IMG/VR virus record: IMGVR_UViG_3300049793_000038 | Location: 1 to 57,732 of that record | Length of the DNA stretch: 57,732 nt | Strand: one strand, 5' to 3' | Source of the DNA: a virus | In this document: in pieces, positions 12,376 to 57,732 of the stretch | Layout of the letters: each line of letters opens with the position of its first letter | Numbering within the stretch: position 1 is the first letter of the stretch | Notes under the pieces: model-generated | Databases searched by the model: none | Told to the model about the DNA's origin: nothing | Seen by the model: the letters and a program-made list of their open reading frames with translations, nothing else | Program-made: the position numbers and the translations under genes

Positions 12376-13167
12376 ATGGCCAGACGTCATGTAAACACAG
12401 ACGCCGAATCAGGTTATAGTGCATCCCGACGAAAAGAGCCCCCAAGGAAACGTACAAAAGAAGACAAGGGTTTTCATAAAACTACACAAGCTGCTGAGAC
12501 CAGGCTTGCGTCTAAACAAGTAGTTCCCCAAACTGATAATCAACAGATACTGTGGGACACACTAAACTCACGTACCTTGACGATGGTAACCGGTCCTGCT
12601 GGTTCTGGTAAAACATACCTTGCTGTTCATGCAGCGGCACAAGCATTAGCTCGTAAAGAAGTTAATCAGATACTGGTATCTAGAACCATGGCAACTGTTG
12701 GTGCGGAGATAGGGCACTTACCAGGAACTGAGGTTGAGAAGATGGCGCCCTACGTAGCCCCTATGTTGGAGGCGCTAAATGAGTTCTTTGGTAAGTATGA
12801 AGTTGAGAAGATGATTAAGGCTGAGATCATTAAGATTGTGCCTGTAGCCTTGTTACGTGGTTATACCTTTAAGCACTCTTACGTACTTATAGATGAAGCA
12901 CAGAACATGACAGCACATGAGCTTAAGACCGTACTCACTCGTTTAGGTGAAGGATCTAAGATGGCTGTTATGGCCGACGTTGCGCAGGTAGATTGTACCC
13001 ATAGGAACTTCAATAGCGGGCTATTAGATTTTATGAATCGCTTACTTGTTTATACCCAGTCTGTAGCCTCAGAATTTATTGGTGTGGTTACTTTGACAAA
13101 TGACGATGTGGTTAGATCCGCGATTGTTAGAGAAATACTGGAAATATATGATGTAGAGGTGTGCTGA
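12376..13167 (+). CDS. phoH: PhoH-like ATPase
   Basis: 263 aa with a basic N-terminal extension (about 1-45). Walker A GPAGSGKTYLAVHAA and Walker B YVLIDEAQNMT are clear, with the PhoH pattern VSRTMATVGAEIGHLPG. PhoH is common in phages. Its role is unsettled, with RNA helicase/NTPase activity proposed for the family. It opens a transcript behind the 12303 promoter that leads into the ribonucleotide reductase region. Confidence 0.92.
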   Translation: MARRHVNTDAESGYSASRRKEPPRKRTKEDKGFHKTTQAAETRLASKQVVPQTDNQQILWDTLNSRTLTMVTGPAGSGKTYLAVHAAAQALARKEVNQILVSRTMATVGAEIGHLPGTEVEKMAPYVAPMLEALNEFFGKYEVEKMIKAEIIKIVPVALLRGYTFKHSYVLIDEAQNMTAHELKTVLTRLGEGSKMAVMADVAQVDCTHRNFNSGLLDFMNRLLVYTQSVASEFIGVVTLTNDDVVRSAIVREILEIYDVEVC

Positions 13168-13718
13168 TGCCAGCAGAGGTATTCGGAGATGGGGACATAT
13201 TTGATCGCTTAACAATTATAGGATGTTACCATGAGAAAGTAGGTTTTAAGTGGAAACATTTATGTCAGTGTGAATGTGGGGTTGTTAAGTCAGTGTATGG
13301 CACAGATATGCAACAAGGGAAGACTAGAAGTTGTGGATGCCTAAATAGAGAGAGCTCTACTAAAAGAAATACGACCCACGGTCATGGAGGTATGACTGGA
13401 GGTAGTAACAATTCTATCACATATACCACGTGGCAATCCATGAAAGCTAGGTGCTATAACGTCAACCAGAACTGTTATTATCATTATGGAGGTAATGGCA
13501 TAACCGTTTGTGACAGCTGGAAAGATGATTTTGCTCAATTTCTTAAGGATATGGGAGAACGCCCCAGTAGGGATTACTGCTTAGATAGGGTTGACTCTGA
13601 AAAGAATTACGAACCTGGAAATTGTCGATGGGTGACTAAAGCAGACAATGCCAGGTTTGCAGTTATGAAACGAGAAGAAAACATTCGCAAGAGGAAAGAA
13701 TTAGATGAGTTCGAATAA
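13167..13718 (+). CDS. Homing-endonuclease-like protein (zinc ribbon + HNH/AP2-type)
   Basis: 183 aa starting in a TGATG overlap with phoH. The N-terminal zinc ribbon (CQCECG, SCGC) is followed by the homing-type domain with YTTWQSMKARCYN, YGGNGITVCDSW, FLKDMG, LDRVDSEKNYEPGNCRW. It is a full-length relative of 56392-56892, and 1611-1922 is a truncated copy. It probably nicks or cuts DNA to spread itself. It is inserted between phoH and the patatin gene without disturbing either, as expected for a free-standing homing gene. Confidence 0.82.
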   Translation: MPAEVFGDGDIFDRLTIIGCYHEKVGFKWKHLCQCECGVVKSVYGTDMQQGKTRSCGCLNRESSTKRNTTHGHGGMTGGSNNSITYTTWQSMKARCYNVNQNCYYHYGGNGITVCDSWKDDFAQFLKDMGERPSRDYCLDRVDSEKNYEPGNCRWVTKADNARFAVMKREENIRKRKELDEFE

Positions 13719-14598
13719 TATAAAAGTGCTTAGTTTAGACGGCGGTGGCGTTCGTGGTTTACATACATTAGCAGTGCTACAAGAATTAGAAACAACTTAT
13801 GGGTTTAAAGTTAAAGATCATTTTGATGTCTTTGGAGGCACTTCAACTGGAGGCCTTCTAGCTGTTCTATATGCAGCTGGTTATGAGACCAGTGACCTGT
13901 TGAATCTTTATAATGTTGAGATACCAAAGATATTTACAAAAGGTGTGTGGCGCAAGGTGACCTCAGGGTTTGGCTTGTTTGATGAGAAGTATTCCAACAA
14001 AGCACTAAGTGCAGCGGCAATGAAGTATGTTGGTACCACTACAATGAACGAATTGAAGAAACCAGCATATGTTACGACAGTAGACATTACATCTACTATG
14101 ACCAAGGTTATTGGACCCGATAGCCAGATGCTTGCCAGGCTAGCGGTGTTATCTACATCTGCAGCGCCTACCTACTTCCCGCCTGTTAGTGTTGGGGATA
14201 CAGCATTAGTTGATGGAGGCTTGGTTGCTAACAATCCGTCAGTAGCGCTTATAACAGAAGTTATGAAAGACCATAAGCTAAAGACACCTGTGAAGATACA
14301 AATGCTTTCTGTTGGGACCGGTTATTGCCCTCATGGTATTACGTTAAAGCGGGCTGAGGGAATGGGCGCACTTGAGTGGGCCGGCCCTATATCGGGAACT
14401 ATGATGTCCGTGCAATCGGGATTCTATCATGACATAGCTAAGGTACTACTTGGTAAAAATTACCTACGGATTAACTCAGAGATGCCTCATGATGTCGCTC
14501 TTGATAGTCTTGACAAGGATGATTGGGACTTGCTTATGGAAATTGGTAAAGAGACTGCAAAGTCTACTTTGAAAGCGGACTTAGAGTTTATATTGTAA
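13705..14598 (+). CDS. Patatin-like phospholipase
   Basis: 297 aa with an intact patatin catalytic dyad: oxyanion loop DGGGVRG (about 12-18), nucleophile elbow GTSTGG, and Asp in VDGGLVANNP. It would hydrolyse acyl chains of lipids. The KVLSLDGGGVRGL form resembles plant patatins and bacterial CapV-type phospholipases used in CBASS defence. In a phage it could act on the host membrane, in lysis or in lipid turnover. No signal peptide. It overlaps the preceding gene by 14 bases. The defence-like resemblance is by motif only. Confidence 0.9.
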   Translation: MSSNNIKVLSLDGGGVRGLHTLAVLQELETTYGFKVKDHFDVFGGTSTGGLLAVLYAAGYETSDLLNLYNVEIPKIFTKGVWRKVTSGFGLFDEKYSNKALSAAAMKYVGTTTMNELKKPAYVTTVDITSTMTKVIGPDSQMLARLAVLSTSAAPTYFPPVSVGDTALVDGGLVANNPSVALITEVMKDHKLKTPVKIQMLSVGTGYCPHGITLKRAEGMGALEWAGPISGTMMSVQSGFYHDIAKVLLGKNYLRINSEMPHDVALDSLDKDDWDLLMEIGKETAKSTLKADLEFIL

Positions 14599-14882: not shown

Positions 14883-16796
14883 ATGAGCTATAATGAAACT
14901 AGAGAAGTGCCTTTTGGGCCTATAGGAGAGGTTGTCTTCTATAGGACCTATGCTAGGCGTATTGATGACGATGTGCCGGATGTGAAAGAAACATTTGAAC
15001 AAACTATTGATAGAGTATTAGATGGTTGTGAAAAGCAATTAAAAATCCCATACACAGCTAAAGAGAGGGAAGAAGTACGCAATACCCTACTGTCTCTTAA
15101 AGGGATGGTAGCGGGTAGGTTCTTATGGCAATTAGGCACCTCCACTGTAGATAGATTGGGCTTCATGTCTCTTATGAACTGCGCAGCTTGTGTAGTTGAT
15201 GAGCCTGTTAGGCCCTTCACATGGACGTTTGATGCCCTAATGGTGGGATCTGGGGTAGGATACAATTTACAACTTAAACATGTGTACTCACTGCCAAGAG
15301 TAAAGAAGATACCATTTATTAAACACTTACCTATAAAAGATGCTGATTTCATTGTACCAGATAGCAGAGAAGGCTGGGTTGAGCTTCTAAGACGTGTTCT
15401 AGAAGCTTATTTTATTACTGGTGAGGGTTTTACATACAGCACCATACTAGTACGAGGGGCCGGTGAAGTTATTAAAGGCTTTGGAGGCACTGCCAGCGGA
15501 CCGGGAATTCTTATTGACGGTATTGGTCGTATCCAGAAAGTTTTACAAACACGTGTTGGCCAGAAGGTTTCTCCACTTAACGTATTAGACATAATGAACA
15601 TTATAGGTAGTGTTGTAGTAGCTGGTAACGTAAGGCGTAGCGCTCAGTTAGCTATTGGGGATCTCATAGATACTAACTACCTGAACTCAAAGAACTGGGG
15701 GGAGGGTAATATACCTAATCATAGGTCTATGTCTAATAACTCAGTTGTTGTTAAGAGAATACAGGACATACCTGAATCATTTTGGGAAGGCTATAAGGGT
15801 AATGGTGAACCTTTCGGGCTAATAAATATACCGCTGTCAAAGAAGTGTGGAAGGTTAGGGGACTTTCAGTATACTGATCCCGATGTTGAGATTTATAATC
15901 CGTGTGCAGAACAAAGCTTAGAGAACTATGAGGTTTGCGCGCTTGGCGAGTGTTATTTACCAAACCATACCTCTAAAGAAGAACTATCAAATACGGTTAA
16001 GATCCTGTATAGAATCATAAAACACTCATTGCGCCTTCCGTGCCACATGCCAGAGACAGAAGCTGTTGTACATAAGAACATGCGCATGGGTATTGGTATG
16101 ACTGGCTATATGCAAGCGACAGAAGATCAGAAGTCCTGGTTACCTGAGGTATATGAGCAGTTACGGGCATATGATAAGCTGTACTCAGCAAAGATGGGCT
16201 GGCCAGAATCAATTAAATTAAGCACCTGTAAGCCCTCTGGAACATTAAGTTTGTTGGCAGGGGTAACGCCAGGAGTTCATCCTGGCTTTAGTCATTACCA
16301 CATTAGGCGTGTTCGCATGCGTACAGATGATCCTATTGTGTTAAAATGTAAGAAGGCCGGATACCATGTTGAGTATCAAGAAGGTTTTGATGGTAAACCA
16401 CAGTATGAGACATCTATAGTGTCTTTCCCTTGTAGCTTTCCATTAAGCACTGTAGTTGCTTCTCAGATTACAGCTATTGACCAATTAGAAGCAGTAAAGA
16501 GACTGCAGACAGACTGGTCTGATAACAGTGTATCATGTACGGTATACTACAAGCTAGAAGAACTACCAACCATACGTAAGTGGTTAGAAGAGAACTATGA
16601 ACATAGCGTTAAGACTATATCGTTCTTACTTCATTCTGGTCATGGATTTAAACAAGCCCCACTAGAAGAGATAACAGAAGAGCAGTACAATGAGATGACA
16701 GCTAGAATAGTAGAGCCATTAGATTTTAGTAGCGTTGGCGATGATGATGGAAATAACCTTTTCGAATGTGAGGCGGGCATCTGTCCGGTAAAGTAG
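14883..16796 (+). CDS. nrdJ: Class II (B12-dependent) ribonucleotide reductase, monomeric type
   Basis: 637 aa. Reduces ribonucleoside triphosphates to deoxy forms using adenosylcobalamin. Key residues align with Lactobacillus leichmannii RTPR: thiyl C341 and E343 in NPCAEQS (N339), redox partner C352 eleven residues later, N-terminal Cys near 100-103 (MNCAAC), and the C-terminal thiol pair C629/C634 in ECEAGICPVK. STCKPSGTLSLLAGVTPG is also typical. No small subunit is required. It supplies dNTPs together with the dUTPase and MazG-like genes. Confidence 0.93.
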   Translation: MSYNETREVPFGPIGEVVFYRTYARRIDDDVPDVKETFEQTIDRVLDGCEKQLKIPYTAKEREEVRNTLLSLKGMVAGRFLWQLGTSTVDRLGFMSLMNCAACVVDEPVRPFTWTFDALMVGSGVGYNLQLKHVYSLPRVKKIPFIKHLPIKDADFIVPDSREGWVELLRRVLEAYFITGEGFTYSTILVRGAGEVIKGFGGTASGPGILIDGIGRIQKVLQTRVGQKVSPLNVLDIMNIIGSVVVAGNVRRSAQLAIGDLIDTNYLNSKNWGEGNIPNHRSMSNNSVVVKRIQDIPESFWEGYKGNGEPFGLINIPLSKKCGRLGDFQYTDPDVEIYNPCAEQSLENYEVCALGECYLPNHTSKEELSNTVKILYRIIKHSLRLPCHMPETEAVVHKNMRMGIGMTGYMQATEDQKSWLPEVYEQLRAYDKLYSAKMGWPESIKLSTCKPSGTLSLLAGVTPGVHPGFSHYHIRRVRMRTDDPIVLKCKKAGYHVEYQEGFDGKPQYETSIVSFPCSFPLSTVVASQITAIDQLEAVKRLQTDWSDNSVSCTVYYKLEELPTIRKWLEENYEHSVKTISFLLHSGHGFKQAPLEEITEEQYNEMTARIVEPLDFSSVGDDDGNNLFECEAGICPVK

Positions 16797-17063: not shown

Positions 17064-17307
17064 TCCAAATGTATTTCAGTATGTAGCAACCTTCCTTGGA
17101 ATTATTGGTATTGGAACTCTTAATTTCTTTCCACGCTATATAAGATATGGACAGGTGACCCTTATTATGTGCAGCTTTTGTTGGATAATATATGGATTTC
17201 ATAAAGATGAATTTATGGTATGCTTCTCACAGGCTGTGTATATGTGCTTTTCAGGGATAGGTATCTATCGCTGGTCAGAGGTTAATATTAATGCAAAGGA
17301 TCACTAG
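17053..17307 (+). CDS. Small membrane protein, about three spans
   Basis: 84 aa with three hydrophobic segments (about 8-24, 33-48, 54-73). The WIIYGF motif followed by an amphipathic helix recalls small transporter repeats (SemiSWEET or PnuC-type), but the similarity is too weak to name it. It would sit in the host inner membrane. It ends two bases before the AdoMet decarboxylase-like gene. Confidence 0.68.
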   Translation: MTISPNVFQYVATFLGIIGIGTLNFFPRYIRYGQVTLIMCSFCWIIYGFHKDEFMVCFSQAVYMCFSGIGIYRWSEVNINAKDH

Positions 17308-17308
17308 T

Positions 17309-17731
17309 ATGGATAAATTCGAACCGATACACCAGCACTTACTTATTAAAGCCATAGTTAACACAGTTATGACAGATCCTAAACAGTTTAAGAAGATGCT
17401 GGTAGCATTAGTTCGATTTCTAGGGATGAAGGCGGTTACCAGGCCTCAAGCAGTTTATATTACAGCGGATGGTAATGAGGGTATAACTGGATCCATTAAT
17501 TTAGCTACATCCCATATCGCAGGTCATGTATGGGATACGTCAGAACTGTTAATGTTCGATATCTATTCTTGTAAACCTTTCGACAGTGATGCTGTAGTTG
17601 CTAAGTTAGCATCATACTTTGATGGGTTCAGAGATGTACATTGGCTCTATGTTGATAGAGAGAAGTTCAATGTGGCTCTTTACAGAGCTGATAACCTTGG
17701 TAATATACCAATTGAGCATACTAAGGAATAG
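17309..17731 (+). CDS. S-adenosylmethionine decarboxylase-like protein (SpeD family)
   Basis: 140 aa from ATG 17309, with AAAGGA 8 bases upstream. The block ATSHIAGHVW...DIYSC aligns with the pyruvoyl-forming site of SpeD (AESHLAIHTW...DVFTC). S68 would become the pyruvoyl group, and H73 and C88 match the catalytic His and Cys. The residue before the cleaved Ser is Thr, not the usual Glu. Length matches the bacterial class Ib proenzyme. Products could serve polyamine synthesis or change AdoMet levels. Some phage relatives act on other amino acids, so substrate is uncertain. Confidence 0.68.
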   Translation: MDKFEPIHQHLLIKAIVNTVMTDPKQFKKMLVALVRFLGMKAVTRPQAVYITADGNEGITGSINLATSHIAGHVWDTSELLMFDIYSCKPFDSDAVVAKLASYFDGFRDVHWLYVDREKFNVALYRADNLGNIPIEHTKE

Positions 17732-23137: not shown

Positions 23138-23410
23138 CTACTTTAAGACATGAAGTCCTTCAAGCATGTGCTCTGTAGTTCCTAAAGCAAGTCCGACAAC
23201 CAGCCAGCTAACTATAGCTGCTATCTTGAAGTACGTATTGAACTTAACTCTATCCTCTTTTAAGCTCATGACATCTATCTTTAACTCTTTGATGTCCTCT
23301 TTTAAACTAGTAAGTATCTCATAGATTGATTCTAGCTTACCCTGCAAGTACGGGTCGGAGTCGCTTGCTGTTCGGTTGCTTGATCTCATTTTATTTACAT
23401 CCCACTTCAC
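23138..23410 (-). CDS. Holin-like / XhlA-type coiled-coil membrane protein
   Basis: 90 aa. A coiled coil (about 25-57, LKEDIKELKIDVMSLKED) is followed by one hydrophobic span (about 61-77, FKIAAIVSWLVVGLAL). This layout matches XhlA/haemolysin-type lysis proteins and some holins. It is the last gene of the late operon, where lysis genes often lie. The first codon used is GTG 23410. An internal ATG at residue 8 is an alternative start. Confidence 0.6.
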   Translation of the reverse strand: MKWDVNKMRSSNRTASDSDPYLQGKLESIYEILTSLKEDIKELKIDVMSLKEDRVKFNTYFKIAAIVSWLVVGLALGTTEHMLEGLHVLK

Positions 23411-31507: not shown

Positions 31508-32371
31508 TCATTTTGTAGCATTCCAGACCGTATACCACTTATACTCAGTCTTGTTAACCTTAGTGACAAGTGTCACGTTTAACTCTATACCTGTATGTCC
31601 AGCTCTATTAGATGGTAGTGCTTCAACAGCTACTGAGGCTGTTAAATCATCCTTAACCATCCACTCAAGGCTCTGCTGTGCGAACTGTTGTGCCATTAGT
31701 ATAGTATTAGTAGTTAACCTGCTTTGGTCTAATAACCATAGCTTACTGCCTATTTCAAATCCTGGTTCGTCGGCATTCACATTACCCCACCAGCCGCGTC
31801 TCATCATAGGGACTGTTACCTCGTAAGGTTCTGCTCGTCTATCTGCAAAGAGACTAACTATGAGGTTAGTTGTCATACCTTGTTCTAGCTCAAAGTCTCC
31901 ATAAGCATTTATACCAATATCAAAGTAACCAACTAAGTCTATTAAGCCTGGAACTGATTCATCAACATTAAATAGCTTTAAATCTAAACCTGTTAATTCT
32001 GGTGCTCTAAATACGTTCATAGAGGTAAGAGTTGCGGTTGCTGTACTGCTGCCTGATATTAGGACCTCACGTCCAACACCATAAGTTAACGCGGCTGTTA
32101 CTGTACTGGTGCCAGGAATGGTTACAGCTAAAGCACCTAAACCAGTCAATAGACCCGCTACCGTGCTTGTGCCAGCTATAGTTGCATATATATCTGTTGG
32201 TATAGCATAAGGTGTTATAGGTTGAACAGCTGCATACATGCCATAACGTCCATATCCGGTTATGCTATCTTTAGTTAGAAACCCTCCAGAACCATAGAAC
32301 CTGTTCTTAAACCTACCTTGGGGGCTTATGATACGATCTCTTATTGTAGGATTATTTAAGCCTAATAACAT
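31508..32371 (-). CDS. Mu gp46-like baseplate protein with N-terminal extension
   Basis: 287 aa. The C-terminal ~140 residues are gp46-like: YGDFELEQG, LFADRRAEP, RRGWWGNV, IGSKLWLLDQSRLT and QQSLEWMVKDD. The N-terminal part adds three short repeats of the form (I/S)(A/P)GTSTV...LT, a Gly/Ser/Thr-rich segment not needed for the usual gp46 (about 150 aa). It lies next to the plus-strand membrane-protein island, so it is the first late gene beyond the interruption. Confidence 0.82.
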   Translation of the reverse strand: MLLGLNNPTIRDRIISPQGRFKNRFYGSGGFLTKDSITGYGRYGMYAAVQPITPYAIPTDIYATIAGTSTVAGLLTGLGALAVTIPGTSTVTAALTYGVGREVLISGSSTATATLTSMNVFRAPELTGLDLKLFNVDESVPGLIDLVGYFDIGINAYGDFELEQGMTTNLIVSLFADRRAEPYEVTVPMMRRGWWGNVNADEPGFEIGSKLWLLDQSRLTTNTILMAQQFAQQSLEWMVKDDLTASVAVEALPSNRAGHTGIELNVTLVTKVNKTEYKWYTVWNATK

Positions 32372-32426: not shown

Positions 32427-32455
32427 TTGACTTCTATGTAGGAAGTCTATATTAT
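32427..32455 (+). promoter_or_regulatory. Promoter of the inverted island
   Basis: TTGACT (32427-32432), 17-bp spacer, TATTAT (32450-32455). It reads to the right, opposite to the surrounding late genes, and starts the ten-gene membrane-peptide cluster. It belongs to the same promoter family as the early genes. Confidence 0.68.
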
Positions 32456-32494
32456 ACTGTGTAAGGCACACACTAAAGTATGGGAGAGGTTGAA

Positions 32495-32596
32495 ATGGCA
32501 AAGTTTTTTCTAGGATTCATGTTCACAATGATCCCAGTGGCAATTATAGGATACGGCTTAATGACCTTGTTTCAGACTATAACTACTGCGTTGTAA
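32495..32596 (+). CDS. 33-aa membrane peptide, island gene 1
   Basis: Encodes 33 residues, almost all hydrophobic (FFLGFMFTMIPVAIIGYGL), predicted to form one membrane span. GGGAGAGG precedes ATG 32495 and the island promoter lies 40 bases upstream. No recognised family. Possible roles include holin-like or regulatory micropeptide. Confidence 0.6.
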   Translation: MAKFFLGFMFTMIPVAIIGYGLMTLFQTITTAL

Positions 32597-32626
32597 CACA
32601 TTTAACTTGGTGGAAGGAGATACATA

Positions 32627-32911
32627 ATGATTACAGTTACACAACAAAGCCCTACGATGCTACGGTTGGAATCAGGGGCATGTAAGTTTATGGGGGTTAT
32701 CTTTGGTGTGATCACTCTTGGTACTTCGTTATTGTTTGGACCCTTTGCTATCGTACCTTTAGTTATAACTGTTGGATGTTTCATTAAAGGTGCAATTAGA
32801 TCTTCAGAAGCTGCTTACCTTGAATCTTTAGTTGTAACTACCTTGGATTCAAGTGGCCAAGTGAAATCCAGCAGTAAATCATCTAAAAGTTGGATTACAT
32901 ACCCACATTAA
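32627..32911 (+). CDS. Two-span membrane protein, island gene 2
   Basis: 94 aa. A short soluble N-terminus, two hydrophobic spans (about 22-38 and 42-56), then a Ser-rich tail (SSGQVKSSSKSSKSW). Very strong AAGGAG upstream. Shape and pattern (L-x-L ... S-x-A-Y-x-x-L) match island gene 6 at 33215-33448, suggesting a duplication. Two-span shape fits a class II holin, but this is not proof. Confidence 0.68.
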   Translation: MITVTQQSPTMLRLESGACKFMGVIFGVITLGTSLLFGPFAIVPLVITVGCFIKGAIRSSEAAYLESLVVTTLDSSGQVKSSSKSSKSWITYPH

Positions 32912-32951
32912 TGCGATAAATCGTAGGATAAGGCGTAGATTGAGGTATAAA

Positions 32952-33020
32952 ATGAGAATTACATTAAATAAGTGCTTATGGACCTTGTTTACTATTATAG
33001 TGTTACTATGTTTATTTTAA
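32952..33020 (+). CDS. 22-aa membrane peptide, island gene 3
   Basis: MRITLNK followed by about 15 hydrophobic residues. GAGG lies 7 bases upstream of ATG 32952. Very short, so less certain, but it sits in the same direction and tight spacing as its neighbours. Confidence 0.42.
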   Translation: MRITLNKCLWTLFTIIVLLCLF

Positions 33021-33032
33021 GGGTATTATTAC

Positions 33033-33125
33033 ATGGATAATGTGTTTCTTATCACAATTGGTATTACTAGTTTCTTAAGCGCTAGTGGTTTAGTGTGTTT
33101 ACTGTTACACAGAAAGGAATGTTAA
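33033..33125 (+). CDS. 30-aa membrane peptide, island gene 4
   Basis: 30 residues with one hydrophobic span (VFLITIGITSFLSASGLVCL) and a basic end (HRKEC), predicting N-out/C-in or an anchored tail. Moderate AAGGG ribosome site. Its stop touches the next start codon. Confidence 0.48.
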   Translation: MDNVFLITIGITSFLSASGLVCLLLHRKEC

Positions 33126-33197
33126 ATGGTTGGAGCTATATTTACTGTATTCAGTATTGGTTTAGGTGTCCATGTGTTAACTTTGATGTTTCATTAA
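33126..33197 (+). CDS. 23-aa membrane peptide, island gene 5
   Basis: 23 residues, nearly all hydrophobic (GAIFTVFSIGLGVHVLTLMF). ATG 33126 immediately follows the preceding stop, with AAAGGAA 8 bases upstream. Coupled translation is likely. Confidence 0.45.
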   Translation: MVGAIFTVFSIGLGVHVLTLMFH

Positions 33198-33214
33198 CCA
33201 TACAGGAGTATATT

Positions 33215-33448
33215 ATGACAAAGAAACAGACTATTGAGATACTTCAGTTAAGTGCTAATCGTATGAGATTTGTAAGTATATTCATCAGTTTCATTGCACT
33301 TGGGTTTGGTATAATAGCTATTGTAGTAGACTTTACACTAGTGTTAGTGTCTATAGCAGCTCTTCTAGTGGCTATTACAGCATACTGTGAAAGTAAAGCT
33401 TATGACGCTTGGATTAATACGTTAACTAGTGGTAAGGGAAACAGGTAA
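33215..33448 (+). CDS. Two-span membrane protein, island gene 6
   Basis: 77 aa from ATG 33215 with AGGAG 7 bases upstream. An upstream in-frame start at 33095 lacks a site and would overlap genes 4 and 5. Two spans (about 20-38 and 42-57) and a short basic tail (GKGNR). Resembles gene 2 of the island in layout and spacing of conserved residues. Unknown function. Confidence 0.65.
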   Translation: MTKKQTIEILQLSANRMRFVSIFISFIALGFGIIAIVVDFTLVLVSIAALLVAITAYCESKAYDAWINTLTSGKGNR

Positions 33449-33547
33449 ATGGTCTACAGTCTAGATATAACAAGCTTAGTTCTTGTTGTTATGCTTATTA
33501 TTACTATTATAACATTGTATATAACTCATATCAACTATAAGGATTAA
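33449..33547 (+). CDS. 32-aa membrane peptide, island gene 7
   Basis: 32 residues with one long span (SLVLVVMLIITIITLYI). ATG 33449 directly follows the TAA of gene 6, implying coupling. Length and simplicity are like the KdpF/Prli-type micropeptides, but no family is claimed. Confidence 0.5.
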   Translation: MVYSLDITSLVLVVMLIITIITLYITHINYKD

Positions 33548-33553
33548 TCACTC

Positions 33554-33922
33554 ATGGATGATAAGATTAGAATCTACACTAAAGCCATTATAGGAGTTGT
33601 TGTTATTCTTGGAGGCCTTATTGGAGGGCTGTTTTCTTTCGTTAGGCCTTATGAACAGAAGGTTAGAACACTTACTGTATGCCTTATGGGAGCCAGTAAT
33701 AGCTATACTAAAGCTTTAGGAGGATTAGATGCTTTAACACAAGTACCTGATTCACCTGAGAAGTCAGCTGCTTTAGCTAAGTTGATTCCTGATTTGTACA
33801 TTACAAAGAACATTGAAGCTTGTATTGCACCAGTTGAAGGAATTAAGTACCCAACAGCACCTGCAGCGGCGGTTAGTAGCTCCGCTACGCGTGGCGAAGC
33901 CACTGAGGGAGAAGTTTATTAA
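33554..33922 (+). CDS. Single-span protein, island gene 8
   Basis: 122 aa. One N-terminal span (about 10-30, AIIGVVVILGGLIGGLF) and a C-terminal soluble domain with two Cys, ending in an Ala/Ser-rich tail. Likely anchored with the domain in the periplasm. Coding sequence for the tail carries two adjacent mini-hairpins (33876-33903). Confidence 0.66.
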   Translation: MDDKIRIYTKAIIGVVVILGGLIGGLFSFVRPYEQKVRTLTVCLMGASNSYTKALGGLDALTQVPDSPEKSAALAKLIPDLYITKNIEACIAPVEGIKYPTAPAAAVSSSATRGEATEGEVY

Positions 33923-33943
33923 TTATTACAAGGAGGATTTCTG

Positions 33944-34354
33944 ATGCTAACACTTAAAACCTTTATTAAAAGTTTCTTTGTATCTGTTAGTTTACTCGGT
34001 ATACTAATCTTAATACAAGCAGAAAGATCAAGTCTACGTCATGACTTACGTATGGAGATAATTAAAACTCGTGAGCTAGAAGATACTGTACTACAACTGT
34101 CAACAGCTGTTCATGATTTAAAGCATCCGCGGATAGATAATAGTACAGATAATAGTGTGGATATTCCTAACGCATTATCCAAAGACAACATTGGACACGA
34201 GACCGACAAGTTAGAAGAACCTTATTACAGTCAAGCTCTAGAGCTGCTATCAAAAGAGCCGTTTGGAGCTAAGGAGCAGAGGGAGGATGGACAATTTCTC
34301 GCTAAGCACCTAAAGATATATCATAAACCTAAGTTGGTTACACCAGATGAATAA
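33944..34354 (+). CDS. Spanin-like single-span protein, island gene 9
   Basis: 136 aa. N-terminal span (about 10-24, FFVSVSLLGILILIQ) then a helical, coiled-coil-like region (LRHDLRMEIIKTRELEDTVL), a layout like Rz inner-membrane spanins. No embedded Rz1 lipoprotein is evident, so lysis function is uncertain. Strong AAGGAGG before ATG 33944. Confidence 0.66.
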   Translation: MLTLKTFIKSFFVSVSLLGILILIQAERSSLRHDLRMEIIKTRELEDTVLQLSTAVHDLKHPRIDNSTDNSVDIPNALSKDNIGHETDKLEEPYYSQALELLSKEPFGAKEQREDGQFLAKHLKIYHKPKLVTPDE

Positions 34355-34493
34355 CTACTTAAAGAACTTCATGTGCTTATTTATGAAGTTAACACATGCA
34401 ATTCCATCAGTAGTCGCCTTTTGGATTGCTTTCATGTTGTTTCTTGTACTATTTTCACCAATGATTATGGGAAACACGTCTTTTTACATATAG
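34347..34493 (+). CDS. 48-aa membrane peptide, island gene 10
   Basis: 48 residues. ATG 34347 overlaps the end of gene 9 in another frame. One strong span (SVVAFWIAFMLFLVLFSPM) after a short amphipathic start. It ends at TAG 34491-34493, right at the large hairpin, marking the end of the island. Confidence 0.52.
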   Translation: MNNYLKNFMCLFMKLTHAIPSVVAFWIAFMLFLVLFSPMIMGNTSFYI

Positions 34494-34494
34494 T

Positions 34495-34600
34495 TCTAGA
34501 AATGCCTAGGAAGGCTGTACAGTGATGTATTGATTTAGGGGTAGGTCACTACCAGAAAATTAAATATACCCCCTACACGGCCTTCCCTGACCTTCCTAGA
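34495..34600. terminator. Large imperfect inverted repeat between converging genes
   Basis: A 30-base left arm (34495-34524, beginning TCTAGAAATGCCTAGGAAGG) pairs imperfectly with 34571-34600 (reverse complement beginning TCTAGGAAGGTCAGGGAAGG). It sits exactly where the plus-strand island meets minus-strand late genes, so it may end both transcripts. The left arm also matches 242-260. Confidence 0.6.
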
Positions 34601-34606
34601 CGCTAT

Positions 34607-34930
34607 CTACTTCTTCACTGTAGCTATTGGTTGCTGTTGTTTAGATAATAGCTCTTGTTCAGCCTTTATGGCTGCATTCCCAACACTCCTTAACCTATTA
34701 ATAATCTCATCTAACTTAGCATCTTTTCTAGGTGCGTCTGTAATCCCAAATACTTGACCAGTTGCTGTGCCTGAGAATATAGAAATGATCAATTTGATCA
34801 ATCCCATGATTACTGATTGATCAATCCCGTTAAATGTAGATGCTGAAGCACCCGCTAAGGGGTTGACGTTGTCTACAGTAGTTGAAGCTGCTGGTGTTGA
34901 AGAGAACCAGCCTTTAATTGTATTCCACAT
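34607..34930 (-). CDS. Hydrophobic holin-like protein
   Basis: 107 aa. An amphipathic N-terminus (WNTIKGWFSS), one hydrophobic stretch (about 39-53, SVIMGLIKLIISIFSG), then a charged helical end with KQQQP. Could be a holin or an inner-membrane partner of the lipoprotein next to it. No definite family. Confidence 0.6.
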   Translation of the reverse strand: MWNTIKGWFSSTPAASTTVDNVNPLAGASASTFNGIDQSVIMGLIKLIISIFSGTATGQVFGITDAPRKDAKLDEIINRLRSVGNAAIKAEQELLSKQQQPIATVKK

Positions 34931-35491: not shown

Positions 35492-35737
35492 TTACCGACA
35501 ACTACCACAATTACAGCAGGGCTTTGGTTTATCGCAGTTCTTCTTGTCCCTACTACACATGCTTAATGTATCCTTTAGTTTATTCTTATCTTTAGCTGGC
35601 GGTTGGCACTGGTTATCTTTGCAGTAGAACATATGGCCTGCTGGATGCCTAGCTGGCATAATTGAATGAACTGATGAGACTACTACACCACTAACTAACA
35701 CACAGAAAGCAGATATTAACAAAATATTGTACTTCAT
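35492..35737 (-). CDS. Cys-rich exported or membrane-anchored small protein
   Basis: 81 aa. N-terminal hydrophobic segment (LLISAFCVLVSGVVVSSV) followed by a Lys-rich, Cys-rich domain (8 Cys in total, ending CCNCGSCR). It could bind metal or form disulphides in the periplasm. Stop and start abut the lipoprotein gene, suggesting joint action. No family recognised. Confidence 0.65.
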   Translation of the reverse strand: MKYNILLISAFCVLVSGVVVSSVHSIMPARHPAGHMFYCKDNQCQPPAKDKNKLKDTLSMCSRDKKNCDKPKPCCNCGSCR

Positions 35738-35762: not shown

Positions 35763-36299
35763 TTAATTATCAGGTTCATGTTCACCATTCAAGATGATAT
35801 CCCCTGCCACAACTTCAAATGTCCCACCAACAGTAAACTTAACATCCCCATCAGTAGTAACTTCATGCGTCCCTTTAGTAACTATCTTAATGTTTCCATC
35901 TGGGTCTATGGTTATGCTGGACTTACCGTCTGTAGCATCTTTATCTGTGGCACTTTGTTTACCAGCCTCACCTTTGTGCTGGGTAATAACAATACTACCA
36001 TCCTCACTGAAGAATATTCTACTTCTAGTTTGAGGGCTGCCTAGTACAACTTCTCCAGGTTTTAAATTCTTAAACCTAAATCTAGGTGTATTACCGATAG
36101 ATACACGGTTCTCTTCAACCCCGTTAACATTCCAGGTAAGCAACTGTGAGTTCAGTGGTAGATTAGAGTAGACCCCGTAAGGTGTTATAACCTCTACGTC
36201 TGCTGTTTGACCTAGGTAAGATACTTGAGCTGTATGATATAGGTCTTTATCAGTACTTACGCGTGTGATGTATGTTCGCTTAGTTATCAACTCATCCAT
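35763..36299 (-). CDS. Mu gp45-like baseplate spike / puncturing protein
   Basis: 178 aa from ATG 36299, overlapping the lysozyme stop (ATGGATGA). The middle is an OB-like domain and the C-terminus an Ile/Val/Gly-rich beta-helix pattern (KIVTKGTHEVTTDGDVKFTV) as in contractile-tail spikes. It would trimerise at the tail tip and pierce the outer membrane. A longer start at 36317 is possible. Confidence 0.82.
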   Translation of the reverse strand: MDELITKRTYITRVSTDKDLYHTAQVSYLGQTADVEVITPYGVYSNLPLNSQLLTWNVNGVEENRVSIGNTPRFRFKNLKPGEVVLGSPQTRSRIFFSEDGSIVITQHKGEAGKQSATDKDATDGKSSITIDPDGNIKIVTKGTHEVTTDGDVKFTVGGTFEVVAGDIILNGEHEPDN

Positions 36300-36906
36300 C
36301 GTAGTCTTCCACATCAATAGTGTACTGGTGGCCTCTGAACCTAACGATTAGGCACTCACCATCTTTGTTACTGTAGAAGACTGTGGGTTGGTTATTGTCT
36401 ACAACAGCTGATTGAGGTGTAGCTACAGAAGCTATAGGGGTGTCATGTGTAGGGGCTGTGCCAGTGACTGCTTTGTTAAACAGAACTGTTTCAGCTGCTC
36501 TTCTTCTAACTAAACCCTGTAATACTCTACCTCCACCTTTATTCCAAACACGGAACTGTTCAGCGGCTCCTCTGTAGTCACTAACATTAAGCTTTCTAAC
36601 AAGAGTACTCTTTCCAAAGGCTCCTTGACCTATGTTGTAACACAGAGAGACCAGGGCATCGAACTGATTCTGGTTTATTTTAACAACTGCTAATTTATTA
36701 ACAGCATCAGCAAACTTCTGAGTATCTAATCTTAATAGAGAGTCTGCTTGCACTTGCGATATAACTAGACCAGCATAAACATCAGGTCCTGTATGTCCAT
36801 AGCCAATAGTCCATATATCAGCTGGACACTTGTATGCTGCTAGTTTACAGCCTTCAAATTCTTTTATAAGGGCGATACCGCCTGCACCTAGTTGAAAGTT
36901 ATTCAT
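36292..36906 (-). CDS. GH24 lysozyme (endolysin)
   Basis: 204 aa. Catalytic Glu E18 in EFEGCKL and T33 in WTIGYGHTG match T4 lysozyme E11 and T26. The position of T4 D20 is Cys (C27, KCPAD), a known variant in phage lysozymes. C-terminal ~60 residues after the domain (about 147-204) are unrelated and may bind the cell wall. A second GH24 domain in the tape measure protein is closely similar. It degrades peptidoglycan in lysis, or during entry given its baseplate location. No signal peptide seen. Confidence 0.9.
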   Translation of the reverse strand: MNNFQLGAGGIALIKEFEGCKLAAYKCPADIWTIGYGHTGPDVYAGLVISQVQADSLLRLDTQKFADAVNKLAVVKINQNQFDALVSLCYNIGQGAFGKSTLVRKLNVSDYRGAAEQFRVWNKGGGRVLQGLVRRRAAETVLFNKAVTGTAPTHDTPIASVATPQSAVVDNNQPTVFYSNKDGECLIVRFRGHQYTIDVEDYDG

Positions 36907-39385: not shown

Positions 39386-41455
39386 TTACCTTTTAGCTTC
39401 TTGTTGTGCTTTATTTGTAGACGTGTAGTTACCTGCTTTGGATTTACCAACTGAAAGATTAAGTCCACCAGCACCGGCAGCATTGACAGAGGCATTACCA
39501 CCAGGATCTTTAATACTGATACTGATATCACCACTAACCTTATTGTTTAGGTTAAGCTTACTCGGGGCCATCTTCAAAGGAGGTACTGGAGGTAGGGAGC
39601 CCACTAGAGGTGAGTTAAATAGCTTTGCTTCTTCTGCTCTTCTATTCACAAGACCCTGGAGAACGGCACCTCCACCTTTATTCCAAACTTTAAATTGCTC
39701 ACTAGCCCCTGCCGTATCGCCGGCATTAAGCTTCCTAAGAAGTGTGCTTTTAGCGAACGCCCCTAGACCTATGTTATAACTTAGTGATGTGAGAGCATCA
39801 GATTGGTTTTGATTAATCTTAGTAGTAACTAACTTATTTACGCCATTTGAAAATTTAACACTATCAGCATACAAGAAGGCGTCAGCTTGAGCTTGTGTGA
39901 TTTTCATTCCTGGATGAACGTCGGGACCCGTATGTCCATAACCAATTGTCTGGACACCTACGGCATCACTATAAGCTTTTAATTTGTTACCTTCAAATTT
40001 CTTTATGAGATCAAGGCCACTTGCAGATGGCGCAGTACTTTCCTTGTCTTTCATCTTCCAGTAAGCATCTAGTGTAGGTGCCATCTTTTTACCAGTAACA
40101 GCTCTGCCAAGGTTGTTGACAAATAGGGCAACACCGTCGTTTATGGGTTTCAGGGCTGACCCAACAGCCTCATACGCAGGGGCGGCAACAGATTTAATGG
40201 ATGCTAAACTCTGATCAACTCTACCCATAACACTTTGGGGCCGTCCATCCTTAAATTTACCTTGTTCATCGGTTATACCCATGAAATATCTAAAATCTTG
40301 AAGCATTCCACTCAGTTTAAAAGAGGCTTTATCCAGCATCTCCAAGAATGCATGACCAATCTTGGTGTCATCAACCATAAGCATAAGACTATGCCAGGCG
40401 GCCTTAACTTCCTCTATGTGAGTAATGCCGTAGACCAATGCTGCAAAGGCACCTGCAATTAAGCCAGGCCAGCCAAGAAACATAAGTCCAGCAACTGCCA
40501 ATTTAGCAACTAAGGCTGTAAAAATTAGCATAATCCCACCTAAAACAGCCTTTACCTTAAGGCTACCCAGAGTGATGCGTTCCCACATGCCATCCCAAGA
40601 TATGTTCTCACCCTTCTTCAAGGAATCCCTAACACCTTCTATCTCTTTAGCCATGCGAAGCATGGTCTCACCTTTGAAGGCAAAGGAGTTACCAAAAGCA
40701 ACTAAGAATAACTTACCGACACTTTCCTCTAACTCTTTAACTCCCAAGGTCATCCGGTTCATCTTGACCCAGTCTTCATCCTTGAACTTCTCAGCAGAGC
40801 CTCCCCAGACCTTTTCAGCAGCAGTTAGCATTTTAGCTTGAATAGCAACCCAGTTCTTCTCTTGCTGCATATCCTTCTGCATCTGCTTGATTTCTTCCAT
40901 GGTGCCAAGCTTAAGTTCTCTAGCTGTCATCATGAAACCACGCTTACTCATCATGCGTTGAATTTTAGCTGAGGCGCTATCTACCGCAGCTTCATCCCCA
41001 CCCATTTCAGCAGCCATGTCCATACCAAGTTGGGCGGCGCGCATCATGTTCTTTCCAGAGACATACCCAGTCTTCAGCATAGGGGCTATCATCTTTCCCT
41101 TGATATCTTCAACATCAAAAGCCCCAGTCATTGAACCTTTTTCAATTAGATTATCAAGTTCTTTCTTACCAACATTAATACGATCTTTTGCTTTCTCAAA
41201 CATACGATCGTATTTCATGCCTAAGTAATCATCATGAGCACCCGCTTTAGCAAACTCTTTCATCTTACTAAACGCAAAGAAGCCAACCATAGCGGTAGCT
41301 AATCCATTAATCTTGGCACTGGTAGCGGCTGCAATTCTACCGATACCACCCATTTTAGTTTCAATGGCATGTGCAGAAGATTGAATTGATTTTGCTGTAC
41401 CACTAAACTTATCAAGAAGCGTTATGGCTACTTGTACATTACCGCCTTGTGACAT
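39386..41455 (-). CDS. Tail tape measure protein with embedded GH24 lysozyme
   Basis: 689 aa. N-terminal helical part, two to three hydrophobic spans at about 302-345, and a GH24 lysozyme domain at about 478-615. Active-site residues E488, D497 and T503 match T4 lysozyme. The domain is closely similar to the standalone lysozyme gene nearby. It sets tail length and would open peptidoglycan during DNA entry. A charged, Gly/Asn-rich end follows. Position after the chaperone is standard. Confidence 0.93.
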   Translation of the reverse strand: MSQGGNVQVAITLLDKFSGTAKSIQSSAHAIETKMGGIGRIAAATSAKINGLATAMVGFFAFSKMKEFAKAGAHDDYLGMKYDRMFEKAKDRINVGKKELDNLIEKGSMTGAFDVEDIKGKMIAPMLKTGYVSGKNMMRAAQLGMDMAAEMGGDEAAVDSASAKIQRMMSKRGFMMTARELKLGTMEEIKQMQKDMQQEKNWVAIQAKMLTAAEKVWGGSAEKFKDEDWVKMNRMTLGVKELEESVGKLFLVAFGNSFAFKGETMLRMAKEIEGVRDSLKKGENISWDGMWERITLGSLKVKAVLGGIMLIFTALVAKLAVAGLMFLGWPGLIAGAFAALVYGITHIEEVKAAWHSLMLMVDDTKIGHAFLEMLDKASFKLSGMLQDFRYFMGITDEQGKFKDGRPQSVMGRVDQSLASIKSVAAPAYEAVGSALKPINDGVALFVNNLGRAVTGKKMAPTLDAYWKMKDKESTAPSASGLDLIKKFEGNKLKAYSDAVGVQTIGYGHTGPDVHPGMKITQAQADAFLYADSVKFSNGVNKLVTTKINQNQSDALTSLSYNIGLGAFAKSTLLRKLNAGDTAGASEQFKVWNKGGGAVLQGLVNRRAEEAKLFNSPLVGSLPPVPPLKMAPSKLNLNNKVSGDISISIKDPGGNASVNAAGAGGLNLSVGKSKAGNYTSTNKAQQEAKR

Positions 41456-56391: not shown

Positions 56392-56892
56392 TCAAGGTAC
56401 AACTTTGCGAGCTCGTCGTGCTTTCTTCAAGTTATCTCCTGGACTCAACCATTGACAATTACCTGGTTCGTAGTTCCCGTACGGGTCTATACGATCTATG
56501 TGCCAACCTTTTACAGGTTTAGGACCCATATCTTCTAAAAAATTCTCAAAGCTTTTTAACCATCTGTCACAAACTTTAATACCCTTAGCGCCATAGGCCA
56601 TGTAATCGGGACAGTTTTTATTTACACACCGCTTCAACATGGCATGATAAGATGAGTATGTGTAGTCGCGACAACTTCGTGTAGCTCTGCCGTGTGTTAT
56701 TCTATTAGCAATCCTAAAACAGCCGCAAGACACGGTAGTTCCACTTATAAGATTACCACCTTGAATAATTTTTTCTATACCACATACACACCTACATAAA
56801 TGGCACCACTGTTTACCACGTTTCTCAATATATGGGTCTACTATAGTTAAATAGTTATATAGCTTACCGACAGTCATTGTGCGTGCTTGCAT
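56392..56892 (-). CDS. Homing-endonuclease-like protein between TerS and TerL
   Basis: 166 aa. Same family as 13167-13718: N-terminal zinc ribbon (CRCVCG, SCGC), then YSSYHAMLKRCVN, YGAKGIKVCDRW, FLEDMG, HIDRIDPYGNYEPGNCQW. It sits between small and large terminase genes, a favoured site for HNH-type genes, some of which also aid packaging. An extra 70-base gap separates it from TerL, while it nearly abuts TerS. Confidence 0.83.
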   Translation of the reverse strand: MQARTMTVGKLYNYLTIVDPYIEKRGKQWCHLCRCVCGIEKIIQGGNLISGTTVSCGCFRIANRITHGRATRSCRDYTYSSYHAMLKRCVNKNCPDYMAYGAKGIKVCDRWLKSFENFLEDMGPKPVKGWHIDRIDPYGNYEPGNCQWLSPGDNLKKARRARKVVP

Positions 56893-57579: not shown

Positions 57580-57732
57580 GTTTAATATCAATATCTATTT
57601 CTATAGTTTAATATCAATATCTATTTCTATAGTTTAATATCAATATCTATTTCTATAGTTTAATATCAATATCTATTTCTATAGTTTAATATCAATATCT
57701 ATTTCTATAGTTTAATATCAATATCTATTTCT
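57580..57732. repeat. 26-bp tandem repeat array, right end
   Basis: Five perfect units (57580-57709) plus 23 bases of a sixth. The last 127 bases are identical to the first 127 of the window. Joined as a circle the array would have at least six full units. See the left array for possible roles. Confidence 0.97.

What the first reader, a model, noticed from the sequence alone, without database searches (positions are those of the whole stretch)
32427..34600. Inverted island of ten micro-membrane-protein genes inside the late baseplate module
Between Mu gp45-like and gp46-like genes, plus-strand DNA holds a promoter (32427-32455) and ten consecutive ORFs of 22-136 aa. By reading each translation, every one carries at least one hydrophobic segment, spacing is tight, several stop/start codons touch, and a 30-base-arm hairpin closes the island. 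Two members (32627, 33215) look duplicated, and one (33944) has an Rz-like layout. Such a concentration of membrane peptides, transcribed early-style against the late genes, suggests a dedicated membrane function: lysis timing, superinfection exclusion or envelope remodelling. I know of no named system with this composition.
Basis: partly seen in the sequence, partly recalled or inferred. Interest (0 to 1): 0.8.

Follow-up and report, generated by a model that had tools for sequence, protein, structure and literature searches.

The report
Inverted early operon of membrane microproteins
A virus of bacteria carries, wedged backwards among its tail genes, a compact set of ten tiny membrane-protein genes of unknown kinship, switched on by the same type of promoter as its early genes, which probably alters the host's cell envelope soon after infection.

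Summary
Ten ATG ORFs (22-136 aa) on the + strand at 32495-34493 each have a ribosome site and a hydrophobic segment. They tile 92% of the stretch (200 shuffles: mean 7%, maximum 25%), and their codon usage is that of the phage's other genes. In 1.27 Mb of relatives plus 200 kb of T4 and SPO1, no other run of small membrane ORFs exceeds three. The promoter at 32427 is one of seven copies of an early-promoter motif (TTGACW-N15-18-TATMTYRT), the other six lying upstream of early genes. The same motif recurs at equal spacing in the relative L006. In 79 relatives the gp45-gp46 gap has a median of 45 nt; here it is 3.4 kb. L008 carries a different inverted small-ORF cassette plus a metallopeptidase in that gap, so it is an accessory-gene hot spot. 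No island protein has a detectable relative in any library searched. Best reading: a moron-like early accessory operon acting on the host envelope, most likely superinfection exclusion or takeover. The function is inferred, not shown. Lysis is less likely: the endolysin is on the late strand and no outer spanin is present. It is a new variant of a known kind, of unusual composition.

The parts
32427..32455 (+). Island promoter, member of the phage's early-promoter family TTGACW-N15-18-TATMTYRT; contains a perfect GACTTC-N7-GAAGTC inverted repeat
32495..32596 (+). ORF 1, 33 aa, one predicted TM segment
32627..32911 (+). ORF 2, 94 aa, predicted TM hairpin
   Evidence: no relatives
32952..33020 (+). 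ORF 3, 22 aa, one predicted TM segment
33033..33125 (+). ORF 4, 30 aa, one predicted TM segment
33126..33197 (+). ORF 5, 23 aa, one predicted TM segment; start codon abuts the stop of ORF 4
33215..33448 (+). ORF 6, 77 aa, hydrophobic hairpin; possible but unproven paralog of ORF 2
33449..33547 (+). ORF 7, 32 aa, one predicted TM segment; start codon abuts the stop of ORF 6
33554..33922 (+). ORF 8, 122 aa, N-terminal TM segment, short helical domain, disordered tail (low-confidence model)
33944..34354 (+). ORF 9, 136 aa, N-terminal TM anchor and charged C-terminal region; Rz-like layout only
34347..34493 (+). ORF 10, 48 aa, TM peptide, overlaps ORF 9 by 8 nt; no lipobox
34494..34606 (.). Long imperfect hairpin between the convergent island and gene 34607; no T-tract on either strand
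34607..34930 (-). Late-strand gene of the same insertion, 107 aa, one weak hydrophobic segment
34952..35491 (-). Late-strand M48-type metallopeptidase, probable lipoprotein (LTSAC)
35492..35737 (-). Late-strand Cys-rich 81-aa protein with N-terminal hydrophobic segment (secreted or anchored)
31508..32371 (-). Flank: Mu gp46-like baseplate protein (PF07409) with an N-terminal extension relative to relatives
35763..36317 (-). Flank: Mu gp45-like baseplate protein

Best explanation
The island is a moron-like accessory operon: a self-contained transcription unit inserted in inverted orientation at a hot spot between two baseplate genes of a virulent-type, Mu-tailed myovirus. Anatomy, shown here: one early-class promoter at 32427 faces ten tightly packed, SD-led, partly overlapping ORFs, each with at least one hydrophobic segment, ending at a long hairpin. 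Mechanism, inferred: host RNA polymerase reads it at the start of infection together with the early genes. Ten small proteins enter the cytoplasmic membrane and change the envelope, most likely blocking DNA entry by competing phages (superinfection exclusion) or otherwise taking over membrane functions. Later, transcription of the late strand runs antisense across the island and turns it down; the lack of a T-tract at the hairpin would let late transcription reach gp46 and the fibre genes.
For: Coding: SD-led ORFs tile 92% against a shuffle maximum of 25%; codon usage equals that of other phage genes, z 5.7 over a synonymous null; 10 of 10 hydrophobic. Early promoter: 7 motif copies against 0.05 expected, the six others 32-151 nt upstream of early genes, the island's 39 nt upstream of its first ATG. 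The motif, derived from the window alone, recurs 7 times in the L006 record with 0 control matches; five of its sites in L006 lie 31-40 nt before SD-led ATGs. Accessory insertion: gap 3.39 kb against a median of 45 nt in 79 relatives; L008 holds an unrelated inverted small-ORF cassette with a TTGACT-N18-TATACT promoter and an HExxH peptidase in the same gap. The island is among the lowest-GC stretches of the genome (36.1%). Function by precedent: SPP1's dispensable early TM ORFs are proposed to serve takeover or exclusion (PMC6316719); T4 Imm and Sp are exclusion proteins (PMC11436027).
Against: No homolog of any island protein was found, so function rests only on predicted localisation and timing, by analogy. 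No expression data exist. The promoter is a consensus match, and the motif was fitted to the window sites before counting there. Codon usage matching the phage and trinucleotide composition near the rest (rank 15 of 111) do not suggest recent foreign import. No true terminator was found.
Confidence: 0.45

Rival explanations
1. Lysis or lysis-timing cassette: some ORFs are holins or antiholins, and ORF 9/10 act like a spanin pair, setting the time of lysis.
For: Several ORFs have holin-like sizes; ORF 9 has an Rz-like layout. The 3TM holin of L006 and L011 (PF11351) has no counterpart in the window. In L011 an M48 gene overlaps the holin gene, and an M48 gene lies beside the island here.
Against: The island promoter is of the early class, while the endolysin (36292-36906) and an XhlA-like protein (23138-23410) are on the late strand. 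No lipobox protein that could be an outer spanin lies in the island. No PHROGs or Pfam lysis match.
Confidence: 0.2
2. Counter-defence or host-shutoff set: the peptides disarm membrane-acting host defences or depolarise and inactivate host membrane enzymes, rather than excluding other phages.
For: Early class promoter, many different small ORFans at a variable site, in keeping with arms-race genes.
Against: No match to anti-defence or defence families beyond chance (PADLOC best E 0.035 to a 2TM effector).
Confidence: 0.2
3. Decayed DNA: fragments of one or more degenerate membrane-protein genes, not separate genes.
For: Six ORFs are under 50 aa and no relatives exist.
Against: Every ORF has its own SD; tiling is far above shuffles; the six ORFs under 50 aa alone carry phage-like codon usage, 1 of 500 nulls as good; two exact stop/start junctions.
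Confidence: 0.05
4. Structural membrane or virion role: the peptides are virion components or assembly helpers despite their strand.
For: Position inside the baseplate module.
Against: Opposite strand, early promoter class, absence from all 79 relatives in which the gp45-gp46 junction was read.
Confidence: 0.05

Closest known systems
Moron elements of lambdoid and Mu-like phages (e.g. HK97 gp15, cor)
   Same: Extra transcription unit between conserved structural genes with its own promoter, lower GC than the genome, absent from relatives; HK97 gp15 is a superinfection exclusion protein (title cited; details from memory).
   Different: Ten genes instead of one or two, inverted, in a phage with no integrase or repressor found; no canonical terminator; codon usage is native.
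SPP1 early units PE1 and PE4 (small ORFs with TM segments; PMC6316719)
   Same: Early promoter driving many short, dispensable ORFs of unknown function, several with TM segments; proposed takeover or exclusion role.
   Different: SPP1 units lie inside the early block, and only some of their ORFs are membrane proteins; here all ten are, and the unit lies inside the late block on the other strand.
T4 opposite-strand small genes in the late block (24.2/24.3; repEA/repEB) and membrane genes imm/sp
   Same: Small genes on the other strand inside a late block; imm and sp are small exclusion proteins.
   Different: Longest T4 run of small hydrophobic ORFs found was three (e.2-e.4); no homology to the island.
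Inverted cassette of L008 at the same gp45-gp46 gap
   Same: Same site, same orientation relative to the late genes, sigma70-type promoter, small SD-led ORFs including one 2TM protein, and a metallopeptidase gene beside it.
   Different: About three small ORFs, no sequence relation to the island; only one is clearly a membrane protein.

Membership tests
Moron (phage accessory transcription unit) | Insertion absent between the same two genes in relatives | tested here: met
   gp45-gp46 gap median 45 nt in 79 loci versus 3.39 kb
Moron (phage accessory transcription unit) | Own promoter | tested here: met
   Early-family promoter 39 nt before the first ATG; activity not measured
Moron (phage accessory transcription unit) | Own terminator | tested here: inconclusive
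   Strong hairpin but no T-tract
Moron (phage accessory transcription unit) | Deviating base composition | tested here: inconclusive
   Among the lowest-GC stretches of the genome, but trinucleotide rank 15 of 111 and native codon usage
Moron (phage accessory transcription unit) | Expressed from a prophage | not testable with these tools
   No integrase or repressor among the early proteins scanned; phage looks virulent
Rz/Rz1 spanin pair | Inner protein with N-terminal TM and periplasmic coiled coil | tested here: inconclusive
   ORF 9 has the layout, no family match
Rz/Rz1 spanin pair | Outer lipoprotein overlapping or adjacent | tested here: not met
   ORF 10 overlaps but has no lipobox; none of the ten has one by reading the sequences
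Superinfection exclusion protein | Membrane location | tested here: met
   Hydrophobic segments in all ten; prediction only
Superinfection exclusion protein | Blocks a second infection when expressed | not testable with these tools
   Needs plating assay
Superinfection exclusion protein | Sequence relation to a known Sie family | tested here: not met
   No PHROGs, Pfam or phage-record match

The most novel reading that the evidence does not exclude
The ten peptides are subunits of one dedicated multi-component membrane assembly, made only of TM microproteins, that a virulent phage installs in the host membrane early in infection: a kind of phage machine not described before.
Probability: 0.12. 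Interest if true: 0.85.

Novelty: new variant of a known kind. Interest (0 to 1): 0.5.

Why it matters
Phages keep many unrecognised small membrane proteins, usually scattered among other genes. A self-contained operon in which every gene is one, with an identifiable early promoter and a defined insertion site, is a compact test object for how phages reshape the host membrane. The promoter motif and the hot spot also give a simple way to find more such cassettes in uncultured relatives.

Tried and rejected
Homology searches with island DNA and proteins against annotated phages, PHROGs, Pfam, PADLOC and IMG/VR contigs found nothing. Paralogy of 32627 and 33215: BLASTP none; hydrophobicity-preserving shuffles p 0.018 uncorrected over 45 pairs, left open. 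Structure models: 33554 pLDDT 63 and 33215 pLDDT 78, pTM 0.42, a single helix; too weak for fold searches, so none were run. A spanin reading was rejected for lack of a lipobox partner. The inverted repeat in the promoter as a repeated operator: no other copy with one mismatch or fewer in the window, so no regulator is claimed. The hairpin as a repeated mobile element: no second copy. Decayed gene rejected on SD, tiling and codon evidence.

Full report
WHAT THE WINDOW IS. The window is a 57,732-base IMG/VR virus record. Both ends lie in the same 26-bp tandem repeat, so it is probably a near-complete genome. Early genes run on the + strand (487-23010: DNA polymerase, primase-helicase, RecE-like exonuclease, PhoH, HNH endonucleases; class II ribonucleotide reductase). 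Late genes run on the minus strand (57365-23138: terminase, portal, sheath, Mu-type baseplate; gene positions; several late names rest on order and relatives). No integrase or repressor appeared among the early proteins scanned. The two strands converge at about 23.1 kb.

THE ISLAND IS REAL CODING DNA. Ten + strand ORFs lie between the gp46-like gene and a late-strand membrane-protein gene. Each has a Shine-Dalgarno match of -4.6 to -11.4 kcal/mol, while other ATGs in the stretch have a median of -0.9. ATG ORFs with an SD tile 92% of the + strand; 200 dinucleotide shuffles gave a mean of 7% and a maximum of 25%, and the minus strand gave none at the same cut-off. Synonymous codon choice in the ten ORFs matches the phage's other genes (mean log frequency -1.105 against -1.094) and exceeds a composition null by 5.7 SD. 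The six ORFs under 50 aa alone are matched by only 1 of 500 nulls. One caveat: the +2 frame scores nearly as well (-1.119), so this test is supportive rather than decisive.

EVERY PRODUCT IS HYDROPHOBIC. All ten have a 19-residue window of at least 1.96 on the Kyte-Doolittle scale; 4 of 75 other genes reach that. Peptides of equal length and base composition reach the observed values in 0.2-7% of simulations per ORF. The longest other run of SD-led hydrophobic small ORFs was three, both in 1.27 Mb of loci from relatives (loci overlap in part) and in 200 kb of T4 and SPO1. SPP1 could not be fetched for the same test.

THE PROMOTER BELONGS TO THE EARLY CLASS. Strict searching with TTGACW-N15-18-TATMTYRT gives seven sites in the window, all on the + strand, against 0.05 expected. 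Six precede early genes and the seventh is the island's. Five of the six lie 32-43 nt before an SD-led ATG (the sixth 151 nt); the island's distance is 39 nt. The motif was fitted to these sites, so independent evidence matters: the record of the relative L006 has seven sites and none with the reversed control pattern, and five of its sites in L006 lie 31-40 nt before SD-led ATGs. The island promoter also holds a perfect GACTTC-N7-GAAGTC repeat; no second copy exists, so its meaning is open.

THE SITE IS A HOT SPOT FOR INSERTIONS. A profile of the baseplate-J-like protein fetched 80 viral and 14 genome loci. In 79 relatives the gap between the gp45-like and gp46-like genes has a median of 45 nt; here it is 3.39 kb. 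L008 (about 50% protein identity to the window in this region; the same sequence also in L101) has 1,353 nt in this gap: an inverted set of small SD-led ORFs with a TTGACT-N18-TATACT promoter, one of them a 2TM protein, followed by a secreted HExxH metallopeptidase on the late strand. The window has an M48-type probable lipoprotein in the same gap, and L011 has an M48 relative (E 4e-5) directly after its 3TM holin. Contents differ, but site, orientation and kind of cargo agree. That is how accessory (moron) cassettes behave.

NO RELATIVES OF THE PROTEINS. None of the ten matched PHROGs beyond chance; the longer ones were also run against Pfam and PADLOC, against annotated phages (island DNA, single proteins) and against IMG/VR contigs (three proteins; this search reaches close relatives only). 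All ten were compared with the loci of relatives. Nothing matched. Records very near the window are withheld from some tools, so close relatives may exist unseen.

HAIRPIN. 34490-34610 folds at -37.3 kcal/mol (z -3.3) on the + strand and -41.4 (z -3.3) on the minus strand, but neither strand has a T-tract. A working bidirectional terminator would stop late transcription before gp46 and the fibre genes, so its absence fits the layout (inference).

MECHANISM. Shown: anatomy, promoter class, insertion site, hydrophobicity. Inferred: early expression, membrane insertion, effect on the envelope. By analogy with SPP1's dispensable early membrane ORFs (PMC6316719) and T4 Imm and Sp (PMC11436027), the most likely effect is superinfection exclusion or early envelope takeover. 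Lysis is less likely because the promoter is early-type while the endolysin (36292-36906) and an XhlA-like protein (23138-23410; judged by layout, no family match) are on the late strand. It is not excluded, since no clear holin was identified in the window. The overall confidence of 0.45 reflects strong anatomy and weak functional evidence.

VERDICT. The interpretation as a membrane-directed early unit is supported; the specific function is open. It is a new variant of a known kind (moron-like early operon), unusual because all ten genes encode small hydrophobic proteins.

Noticed in passing
39386-41455 and 36292-36906: The tape-measure-like protein carries a Phage_lysozyme domain (residues 485-609, E 4e-47) that is about 70% identical at DNA level in places to the standalone lysozyme gene 3.1 kb away; which of the two is the endolysin is not certain.
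   Followed up: partly
1-145 and 57580-57732: Both ends of the record lie in the same 26-bp tandem repeat (GTTTAATATCAATATCTATTTCTATA), which suggests a near-complete genome and possibly an origin or terminal repeat.
   Followed up: no
31508-32371: The gp46-like protein has an N-terminal extension of more than 100 aa with repeated GTSTV-like motifs that close relatives (161-163 aa) lack, directly next to the island.
   Followed up: no
17291-17731: Gene resembling S-adenosylmethionine decarboxylase (PHROG 3125, E 9e-12), a possible polyamine gene in the early block.
   Followed up: no
13705-14598: Patatin-like phospholipase-type protein by its DGGGVRG / GTSTGG motifs (PHROG 25573, unknown function) among early genes.
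   Followed up: no
14883-16796: Class II ribonucleotide reductase 56% identical to those of Maribacter phage Panino and a Manatee Spring phage record, far above other phage matches; may hint at the host group.
   Followed up: no
L086 (CP070712.1): A similar baseplate module sits in a contig labelled as a Thermoplasmatales archaeon chromosome MAG; archaeal host, misbinning or prophage is unresolved.
   Followed up: no
L008 1170-1199 and 544-885: A second inverted gene with a strict early-family motif 284 nt upstream lies on the other side of gp45 in L008, so inverted early-type cassettes flank gp45 on both sides there.
   Followed up: partly
1611-1922, 13161-13718, 56392-56892: Three related HNH-type endonuclease genes (PHROG 374), one on the late strand.
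   Followed up: no
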